Positions 56,815 through 58,605 of a DNA stretch of 64,000 nt are shown in pieces (the stretch's first letter is position 1; each line of letters begins with the position of its first letter). Both the position numbers and the translations under genes were made by a program. Origin of the DNA: Actinomycetota bacterium (GTDB lineage: Bacteria; Actinomycetota; Geothermincolia; Geothermincolales; RBG-13-55-18); the NCBI GenBank assembly GCA_013178005.1, contig JABLXL010000004.1, positions 1 through 64,000 on the forward strand, written 5' to 3'. The notes beneath the pieces are model-generated. The model saw only the letters and a list, made by a program, of their open reading frames with translations. It searched no databases and was not told the origin of the DNA.

Positions 56815-56966
56815 CACGCCCGTTGGCCTGGGGGTCACCTATGAAAATGGCTGTCAACGTCCTTCCAGGCCCGCTCCGGCGAAGGGTCTCTTGATAAAGG
56901 ACCAGAATCAGTCACCTATCCGTGCTCTGCAAGCAGGCACACTATACTTTGGGAGCCGGCCTCTCA

Positions 56967-57013
56967 ATCAGGTCTGAGGGCTCTACCCCACGGGGTAAGC
57001 CGTGACCCCCAGG
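56967..57013. ncRNA. Candidate bridge/seek RNA target-binding loop of the insertion sequence
   Basis: Within the non-coding end downstream of the transposase, ATCAGGTCTG (56967-56976) is identical to the right junction (58151-58160). GTGACCCCCAGG (57002-57013) is the exact reverse complement of the left junction CCTGGGGGTCAC (56827-56838). Between them TACCCC and GGGGTA can form a hairpin. One guide in direct and one in inverse orientation is what known IS110-family guide RNAs show for their two half-targets. Transcription and strand are not shown by the sequence. Confidence 0.6.
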
Positions 57014-57025
57014 AGACGGCCGGCC

Positions 57026-58024
57026 CTAGTCCTTGAAAAAGGGCCTCTCGTCCCGAAGCATATAATAGATCACCTTGAGCATCTCCCTGGCCACCGCCAC
57101 GCGGGCGGCGTTCTTGCCATGTCGCAGGCAAACCCTGCGGTAGAGGCGCTCCATCCTGGAGGACCCCCTGCAGAAATGGGGGGAGAGCTCCACCATTATC
57201 CAGCGCAGGTACTTGGAGCCCTGCTTGGTGATGGGGCCGTAGCGCGTCCTCCCGCCCGAGGAGTGCACCCGGGGGACCAGGCCGGCGTAGGAACAGAGCT
57301 TGCGGGCGTTGGGGAACCTCGCGATATCCCCGATCTCTGAGATGATGAGCAGGGCGGAGTAGTAGCCGATGCCGGGGATGGTGGTGAGCAGTATGGCCCG
57401 GGGGTCGTCTGTGGCGATCTCCTCCACCCGCGCGTCCACCTCCGCGATCAGCTGCTGCAAGGCCTCCGCCAGGCGCAGGTAGCCCCGCAGCTCCAAGGCG
57501 TAGGCGGGCCGCAGGTCCAAGGCCTGCAGCTGGCGCAAGGAGCCCTTGCCGAAGAGGTCCGTATACCTCGGCCGGATGCCGTTCTTGGAGAGGATGGCGT
57601 GCACCTTGTTCTTCACCTGGGTGCGCATGGAGATGAGGGAGGCCCTGTATCTCAGGATCTCCCGCACGTCCCTCACCGCGCGGGGAGGGATGTAGGCGGT
57701 GGGCAAAAGGTCCGTCCGCAGCAGATGGGCCAGGATGCGCGAGTCTATGCGGTCCGTTTTGATCCTGGCCTCGGCGATGGCGCGGGTGCGCAGGGGGTGG
57801 GCCAGGTGTACCTCCGTGCCCCGGTCCTCAAGCAGCTCGTAGAGCCAGTACCATGAGCCGGTGGCCTCCAGGGCTATCTTGGCGTCTTGGGGAAGATCGT
57901 TCAAGAACTCCATAAGACACGGGGCATGGTTTAGAAGCTTCACCTGCTCTAACACCTCACCGCCCTCTCCCATCTTCGTTGCCACCGAATAGCGCTTGTG
58001 ATAGTCTAGGCCTACATACATCAT
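57026..58024 (-). CDS. IS1111/IS110-family DEDD transposase
   Basis: A 332-residue protein. The RuvC-like N-terminal domain has YVGLDYHKRYSVA (first Asp), IALEATGSWYWL (Glu) and KTDRIDSRILAHLLR (two Asp): the DEDD set. The C-terminal Transposase_20 domain has LTTIPGIGYYSALLIISEIG, FPNARKLCSYAGLVP and KQGSKYLRWIMVEL with the conserved Ser. GAGGAGG lies 8 bases before ATG 58024. The gene is full length and appears intact. Confidence 0.95.
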   Translation of the reverse strand: MMYVGLDYHKRYSVATKMGEGGEVLEQVKLLNHAPCLMEFLNDLPQDAKIALEATGSWYWLYELLEDRGTEVHLAHPLRTRAIAEARIKTDRIDSRILAHLLRTDLLPTAYIPPRAVRDVREILRYRASLISMRTQVKNKVHAILSKNGIRPRYTDLFGKGSLRQLQALDLRPAYALELRGYLRLAEALQQLIAEVDARVEEIATDDPRAILLTTIPGIGYYSALLIISEIGDIARFPNARKLCSYAGLVPRVHSSGGRTRYGPITKQGSKYLRWIMVELSPHFCRGSSRMERLYRRVCLRHGKNAARVAVAREMLKVIYYMLRDERPFFKD

Positions 58025-58153
58025 TGCTGCACCTCCTCAATCGGTTCTGTGCGTCCCGCCTCGTTCGGGATGGCACCCGTCGCTGCTTTGTTCAGCGTTG
58101 GCCCCTAGAGGCCCTTCGAACCCTGGGGAGCGTGCAGCAATTTTCATGGTATC

Positions 58154-58605
58154 AGGTCTGGCCATCGGCCTGAGGCCTGGGGGCCAGGGCTATCGTCCGA
58201 TTCAAACGGTTACAAGACTGCTTTTTCTTATGTGTTAAGCAGATGAGTATGGCCTGGGGGTCAATGGCCTGGGGGTCAAGGCTGGCCATCGGCCTGAGGC
58301 CTGGGGGCCAGGGCTATCGTCCGATTCAAACGGTTACAAGACTGCTTTTTCTTATGTGTTAAGCAGATGAGCAGCAGGCAGACATACTTAGAATTGTGGT
58401 CCTTCTCCCGGATTCAACCGCCCGCACCCAGGCGCCCGTTCCTTCTCCACGGCAGGCGTATTGAGGATTATGGTTTTTCTCCCGGAAGTGAGGGCGGAAA
58501 AGACGGTCGGGCTCGTCGCCGGCCGAGAAATAACCGGTGGCTAAGCTCCATGCGTGGGGTTGAAAAAAGAGTCGAAACGTATTCCCCGTTCTCTGCGGCG
58601 AAGAG
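58154..58605. repeat. Second copy of the dispersed intergenic repeat, rearranged, beside the insertion sequence
   Basis: Inverse relative to the copy at 41985-42255. A 90-bp unit is duplicated in tandem (58158-58247 and 58282-58371, offset 124, essentially identical), with GGCCTGGGGGTCA twice between them. A further homologous block runs 58451-58605. The element inserted at one of the GGCCTGGGGGTCA sites. No gene is supported over 58025-58666. Confidence 0.75.

What the first reader, a model, noticed from the sequence alone, without database searches (positions are those of the whole stretch)
56827..58160. Insertion sequence whose non-coding end matches both of its own junctions, as a guide RNA would
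The transposase is IS110/IS1111-type. In its downstream non-coding region, ATCAGGTCTG (56967-56976) equals the right junction (58151-58160). GTGACCCCCAGG (57002-57013) is the exact reverse complement of the left junction (56827-56838). The two lie 25 bases apart around a TACCCC/GGGGTA hairpin. Known IS110-family bridge/seek RNAs use one direct and one inverse guide for the two half-targets. This gives a readable guide-target pair from a single genome.
Basis: partly seen in the sequence, partly recalled or inferred. Interest (0 to 1): 0.85.

Follow-up and report, generated by a model that had tools for sequence, protein, structure and literature searches.

The report
IS1111-type insertion sequence with seekRNA guide
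This is a small jumping gene whose non-coding tail encodes an RNA that matches both halves of the site it sits in, so it is a new member of a recently discovered family of RNA-guided insertion sequences that here targets a repeat scattered through its host genome.

Summary
The element (56838-58154, 1317 bp, transposase on the minus strand) is an IS1111-type insertion sequence. It has subterminal inverted repeats, 7- and 3-bp terminal extensions, no target duplication, and a short RNA encoded downstream of the transposase. Its two guide segments match the rejoined target over 11 and 9 nt, overlapping in a TGA core, with the top-strand guide 5' of the bottom-strand guide as in published IS1111 seekRNAs. 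A second full copy and two remnants sit in the same target, a REP-like repeat. Its empty site occurs 14 times in this genome. In 36-48 diverse relatives, both guides co-vary with each element's own flanks (z 8.9 and 9.9), and related folds show compensatory pairs. The guide RNA is therefore well supported by sequence, but not shown by experiment. It is a new member of a known kind. One side result may be more general: a leader helix between the left IS end and the transposase ribosome-binding site co-varies across relatives. Such a leader was tested before in ISPpu9.

The parts
56838..58154 (-). Whole insertion sequence, 1317 bp, tnp-sense on the minus strand
   Evidence: Ends from sTIRs and 7/3-bp extensions; agrees with empty sites GGCCTGGGGGTCA|GGGCTGGCC in the same genome and with the second full copy
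57026..58024 (-). Transposase gene, 332 aa, IS110 family (DEDD_Tnp_IS110 + Transposase_20)
   Evidence: Pfam E 1.7e-21 and 4.6e-23; NCBIfam NF033542 'IS110 family RNA-guided transposase' E 2e-76
58135..58147 (-). Left subterminal inverted repeat ATGAAAATTGCTG
56841..56853 (-). Right subterminal inverted repeat CAGCCATTTTCAT
56950..57028 (-). Predicted seekRNA, about 79 nt: outer stem, internal loop with the two guides, inner hairpin
   Evidence: Fold -45.2 kcal/mol, z -2.9, 2 of 200 shuffles as stable; matches covariance model R2 built from relatives at this position (13.1 bits)
57003..57013 (-). Guide T (RNA CCUGGGGGUCA), complementary to the tnp-sense top strand of the right half-target
   Evidence: guide T co-varies with flank in 48 elements, z 8.9
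56968..56976 (-). Guide B (RNA CAGACCUGA), complementary to the bottom strand of the left half-target, overlapping the TGA core
   Evidence: guide B co-varies with flank in 36 elements, z 9.9
56965..56970 (-). Conserved TGATTG motif directly after the six informative guide-B bases
   Evidence: Present as TGA[TC]TG in most relatives
56825..56837 (+). Target half matching guide T (GGCCTGGGGGTCA)
   Evidence: same sequence in empty REP-like repeats
58155..58168 (+). Target half matching guide B (GGTCTGGCCATCGG)
   Evidence: most empty copies read GGGCTGGCCATCGG
58025..58154 (-). 130-nt leader upstream of tnp, strongly folded, pairs the ribosome-binding site with the left IS end
   Evidence: z -4.7 and 0 of 200 shuffles as stable, z -5.4; helix TGCTGCAC/GTGCAGCA
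58132..58139 (-). 5' arm of the leader helix (TGCTGCAC), inside the left end
58025..58032 (-). 3' arm of the leader helix (GTGCAGCA), between the Shine-Dalgarno AGGAGG and the start codon
56852..56857 (-). TTGACA, -35 half of the promoter that forms when the IS ends are joined in a circle
   Evidence: TTGACA-17-TACCAT at the joined ends
58146..58151 (-). TACCAT, -10 half of the circle-junction promoter
58155..58255 (+). REP-like chromosomal repeat interrupted by the IS
   Evidence: 98% identical to the adjacent uninterrupted copy
58262..58380 (+). Adjacent uninterrupted REP-like repeat copy with an empty target (GGCCTGGGGGTCA|AGGCTGGCC)

Best explanation
An autonomous IS1111-type insertion sequence. 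Its transposase gene is followed by a short RNA (seekRNA/bridge RNA). One internal loop of that RNA holds two guides, one for each strand of the target, overlapping in a TGA core. The RNA would bind the DEDD transposase and direct it to GGCCTGGGGGTCA|GG[TG]CTGGCC, the core of a REP-like extragenic repeat present in many copies in this genome. Excision would give a circle that forms a promoter (TTGACA-17-TACCAT) for tnp and the RNA, and the circle would insert without target duplication. Shown by sequence: ends, empty sites, guide-target match, repeated insertion into the same repeat, guide/flank co-variation and structure in relatives. Inferred: expression, RNA-protein binding, circle formation and guided insertion.
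For: Transposase family. sTIRs and 7/3-bp extensions shared with about 50 relatives, and the TGA core. A second 99%-identical full copy in the same target, plus two remnants in the same target. Empty sites, 14 exact copies, with no target duplication. Guides match the target 11/11 and 9/9 nt; neither chance nor the upstream region explains it. Guide order T then B and overlap in the core agree with published IS1111 seekRNAs (PMC11187229). Guide/flank co-variation in relatives is z 8.9 (T) and 9.9 (B); it is absent further downstream in the NCR and at most weak on the wrong strand (z 1.9 and 0.05). In relatives the consensus fold has 15 pairs, 11 of them kept through changes on both sides in at least one sequence. 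Circle-junction promoter in nearly all aligned elements.
Against: No RNA or protein data. The covariance model of the long-NCR actinobacterial group (R1) does not find this RNA. The broader model R2 finds it only when the 198-nt non-coding region is searched alone (13.1 bits, E 0.0036), not in the whole window. No close relative (>50% identity) with a different guide was found, so re-targeting could not be tested within this subfamily.
Confidence: 0.95

Rival explanations
1. The IS recognises the DNA shape or sequence of the REP-like palindrome through its protein, and the guide-like matches are incidental, for example copied from a flank.
For: Insertion into palindromic REPs is common for this family, and four of the five insertions in this genome are in the repeat.
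Against: In relatives with unrelated flanks the same two positions of the RNA match the flanks. A third copy (L004) lies outside the repeat on its visible side, and its right flank still reads GGTCT, 5 of 6 guide-B bases. The matches have the right strand, order and loop position.
Confidence: 0.03
2. The downstream non-coding structure is only a transcription terminator or structural element, and the matches arise by chance or by duplication of target DNA into the IS.
For: The region is GC-rich and forms hairpins.
Against: Both matches together: 0 of 20,000 shuffles. No run of T after the stem. Conserved loop architecture and compensatory pairs in relatives.
Confidence: 0.01
3. The guide RNA comes from the strongly folded upstream region (IS110-type arrangement) and the downstream region is secondary.
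For: The upstream 130 nt is even more stably folded (z -4.7 to -5.4).
Against: The upstream region has no guide-like match to either flank (best score 5). Its fold pairs the tnp ribosome-binding site with the IS end, a different role, and this pairing co-varies in relatives.
Confidence: 0.01

Closest known systems
IS1111 group of the IS110 family with seekRNA (ISEc11, ISPa11, ISKpn4; PMC11187229)
   Same: DEDD transposase of 332 aa, sTIRs, 7- and 3-bp extensions, no target duplication, longer NCR downstream, about 80-nt RNA with top-strand guide 5' of bottom-strand guide overlapping in the target, circle-junction promoter.
   Different: Stem sequences differ enough that a covariance model of its actinobacterial relatives misses it. 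Nearest protein relatives found are at most 48% identical. Its target is a REP-like repeat of an uncultured lineage.
IS621/IS110 bridge RNA (PMC11208160)
   Same: RNA-guided DEDD recombinase with dual-strand target recognition in an internal loop and a short core.
   Different: In IS110/IS621 the RNA is encoded upstream of tnp and, for the tested IS110 member ISEc21, the guide order is reversed (PMC11187229). A separate donor-binding loop was not looked for in detail here.
ISPpu9 of Pseudomonas putida (PMC8450116)
   Same: IS inserted at a fixed position in REP sequences; long tnp leader that folds over the ribosome-binding site; an RNA encoded downstream of tnp.
   Different: ISPpu9 also has an antisense RNA (Asr9), which was not looked for here. 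That paper reports a regulatory role for the downstream RNA Ssr9, not guidance.

Membership tests
IS1111 group of IS110-family insertion sequences | DEDD (RuvC-like) N-terminal and Transposase_20 C-terminal domains, 330-350 aa | tested here: met
   332 aa; PF01548 and PF02371; NF033542
IS1111 group of IS110-family insertion sequences | Subterminal inverted repeats, usually 11-13 bp, near-perfect | tested here: met
   ATGAAAATTGCTG/CAGCCATTTTCAT, 12 of 13 bp
IS1111 group of IS110-family insertion sequences | Terminal extensions of 7 bp (left) and 3 bp (right), no target duplication | tested here: met
   With these ends the joined flanks have the form of the empty sites found 14 times in the genome
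IS1111 group of IS110-family insertion sequences | Longer non-coding region downstream of tnp | tested here: met
   188 nt downstream, 130 nt upstream
seekRNA / bridge RNA | Two short segments complementary to top and bottom target strands, T 5' of B in IS1111, overlapping in the target | tested here: met
   T 11 nt at NCR position 13, B 9 nt at position 50, overlap TGA
seekRNA / bridge RNA | Guides lie on the two sides of a conserved internal loop | tested here: met
   Fold; compensatory pairs in relatives; R2 aligns here with no broken pair marked
seekRNA / bridge RNA | Match to the sequence/structure model of its actinobacterial long-NCR relatives (R1) | tested here: not met
   6.0 bits, not significant; it is a divergent RNA, not a member of that subtype
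seekRNA / bridge RNA | RNA co-purifies with the transposase and is required for transposition | not testable with these tools
   Needs an experiment
IS1111 group of IS110-family insertion sequences | Circular intermediate with a junction promoter | tested here: inconclusive
   Promoter sequence TTGACA-17-TACCAT forms only at joined ends; the circle itself was not observed
Rfam-described RNA family | Match to a curated covariance model | tested here: not met
   No Rfam match at E up to 1

The most novel reading that the evidence does not exclude
IS1111-type elements in general carry a conserved tnp leader in which sequence just inside the left IS end pairs with the transposase ribosome-binding site. 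The pairing is built from different sequences in different subfamilies, so translation of the transposase is tied to the state of the leader RNA. This would extend a mechanism tested only in ISPpu9, as far as I found, to much of the group.
Probability: 0.5. Interest if true: 0.45.

Novelty: new member of a known kind. Interest (0 to 1): 0.35.

Why it matters
It gives a readable guide-target pair, with matching empty sites, second copy and remnants, in an uncultured (probably actinobacterial) lineage, and it shows that the guide rule holds statistically across several dozen distant IS1111 relatives. That makes the element a candidate programmable recombinase with a short (about 80-nt) RNA and a compact 332-aa protein. 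It is also a further example of these insertion sequences living in REP-like repeats. It does not change the understanding of the family.

Tried and rejected
Close relatives in viral contigs: none. Rfam: no match. A covariance model from actinobacterial long-NCR relatives (R1) did not find the element, although it found many held-out relatives; a broader model (R2) was then built and gave only local support. The upstream region as the guide source was rejected: no flank matches. MFE z-score over the whole 191-nt downstream region is not significant (-0.67); only the 79-nt guide-bearing part is. The test of guide B without anchoring on the TGAYTG motif was weak (z about 3) and became strong when anchored; the anchor was chosen after looking at folds. 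One alignment attempt (A5) was discarded because three short-loop sequences misaligned.

Full report
Observation. The open reading frame 57026-58024 on the minus strand encodes a 332-aa protein with the DEDD_Tnp_IS110 and Transposase_20 domains. NCBIfam names it an IS110 family RNA-guided transposase at E 2e-76.

Ends and target. A second full copy lies in the same genome (contig C49:20685-22018, 99% identical), as does the right end of a third copy cut by a contig end (L004) and two internally deleted remnants (L003, L005). The inverted repeats ATGAAAATTGCTG / CAGCCATTTTCAT, with the 7- and 3-bp extensions defined for IS1111 elements (PMC11187229), put the ends at 56838 and 58154. The joined flanks then read GGCCTGGGGGTCA|GGTCTGGCCATCGG. 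The uninterrupted sequence GGCC..GGGGTCAGG.CTGGCCATCGGCC occurs 14 times in the genome, with no match for the reversed control pattern. It is the start of a repeat family with 58 recognisable places, counting the window's own. One uninterrupted copy lies right next to the element. The second full copy and both remnants are in the same kind of site. The exact pattern was not found in 14 related genomes, including two of the same genus.

Guides. In tnp sense the downstream non-coding region reads ...UCUC-CUGGGGGUCAC-GGCUUACCCCGUGGGGUAGAGCC-CU-CAGACCUGAUUGAGA... Segment T (CCUGGGGGUCA, window 57003-57013) pairs with the top strand of the right half-target over 11 nt. Segment B (CAGACCUGA, 56968-56976) pairs with the bottom strand of the left half-target over 9 nt. 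They overlap in TGA. T lies 5' of B, which is the order reported for IS1111 seekRNAs and the reverse of the tested IS110 member. In dinucleotide shuffles the two full segments never occur together (0 of 20,000). The upstream region has no such match.

Relatives. A profile search of GTDB genomes gave 80 relatives of at most 48% identity. In 55 elements (including the window's two copies) the ends align on TGAnnnnATGAA...TTCATnnn|TGA, with some variation. For 48 distinct elements, the 8 bases beyond the core of the own right flank match nt 5-60 of the downstream region better than flanks of other elements do (6.08 versus 5.15 of 8, z 8.9). There is no signal further downstream, and only weak signal on the wrong strand (z 1.9 for T, 0.05 for B). 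For 36 elements, the 6 bases before a conserved TGAYTG motif match the own left flank (3.64 versus 1.79 of 6, z 9.9, positions -5 to -1); the window element matches 6 of 6. An alignment of 22 relatives has an RNA consensus with 15 pairs, 11 of them with at least one sequence that keeps the pair through changes on both sides. The permutations do not model phylogeny, but the elements are diverse and were deduplicated by flank.

Structure of this RNA. The 79-nt segment 56950-57028 folds with an outer stem, an internal loop holding T and B, and an inner hairpin (-45.2 kcal/mol, z -2.9). In the predicted fold parts of T and B pair with each other inside the loop, which would have to open for target binding. 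Covariance model R1, from the long-NCR relatives, does not recognise it. R2, from a broader set that includes an element of the same taxonomic family (L012), places it at 56950-57026 with no broken pair marked, but only 13.1 bits, and it does not stand out in the whole window. It is therefore a divergent member by sequence.

Expression. Joining the IS ends creates TTGACA-17-TACCAT, absent at the integrated left end. Nearly all aligned relatives also form a promoter-like match across the joined ends, as published for ISEc11. The 130-nt leader upstream of tnp is strongly folded, and its closing helix pairs the left end with the ribosome-binding site. In 37 elements the best helix between the left end and the own ribosome-binding site is stronger than with other elements' sites (z 8.1), using different sequences in different subfamilies (GGGGCCTCC, GCTGCAGCACC, ATTCTCCTTCC). 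An RBS-covering leader was tested in ISPpu9, which also lives in REPs (PMC8450116). I found no report of it as a general feature of the group, but the library searched is limited.

Host. Two elements from its relatives (L010, same family; L009, same phylum) are identical at their ends to elements in records titled Actinomycetota (L094, L063), so the host is probably an uncultured actinobacterial lineage (inference).

Verdict. A new, well-supported IS1111-type element with a readable seekRNA. It is ordinary for its family in mechanism. What is added is the independent statistical confirmation across relatives, the exact ends and target, and the leader observation. That the RNA is made and works remains inference.

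Noticed in passing
L160 (G000:C45:29300-31300), ORF 298-1314 minus: A 338-aa Y1-type (HUH) transposase gene (PF01797 match at C45:30236-30556) flanked by copies of the same repeat in opposite orientations (29456, 29498, 29569 plus; 30890 minus), the layout of a REP-associated transposase with its REPs.
   Followed up: partly
L003 (G000:C1:41612-41757): A 146-bp remnant in which one end of the IS runs to ...CTCTCAATCA, just before the guide-B bases, and joins directly to the target half AGGCTGGCC. The deletion joins guide DNA to target at the shared ATCA; replication slippage or recombination at the guide could each explain it.
   Followed up: partly
L004 (G000:C49:1-130): One end of a third copy whose flank is not the repeat (GGTCTTATTTTTTCATAACC) but still matches five of six guide-B bases; its other flank is missing from the assembly.
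   Followed up: partly
58025-58154 and relatives: Leader helix between the left IS end and the transposase ribosome-binding site, co-varying across 37 elements (z 8.1).
   Followed up: partly
L042 and L043 (archaeal relatives), 2331-2431: Weak matches of the seekRNA model R1 upstream, not downstream, of the transposase (E 0.98 and 0.09), in elements with a long upstream non-coding region.
   Followed up: no
L080 (Micromonospora phytophila): A distant relative whose right flank (TGACCCCCAGGC) equals the window element's over 12 bases, with a similar guide T; probably coincidence.
   Followed up: no
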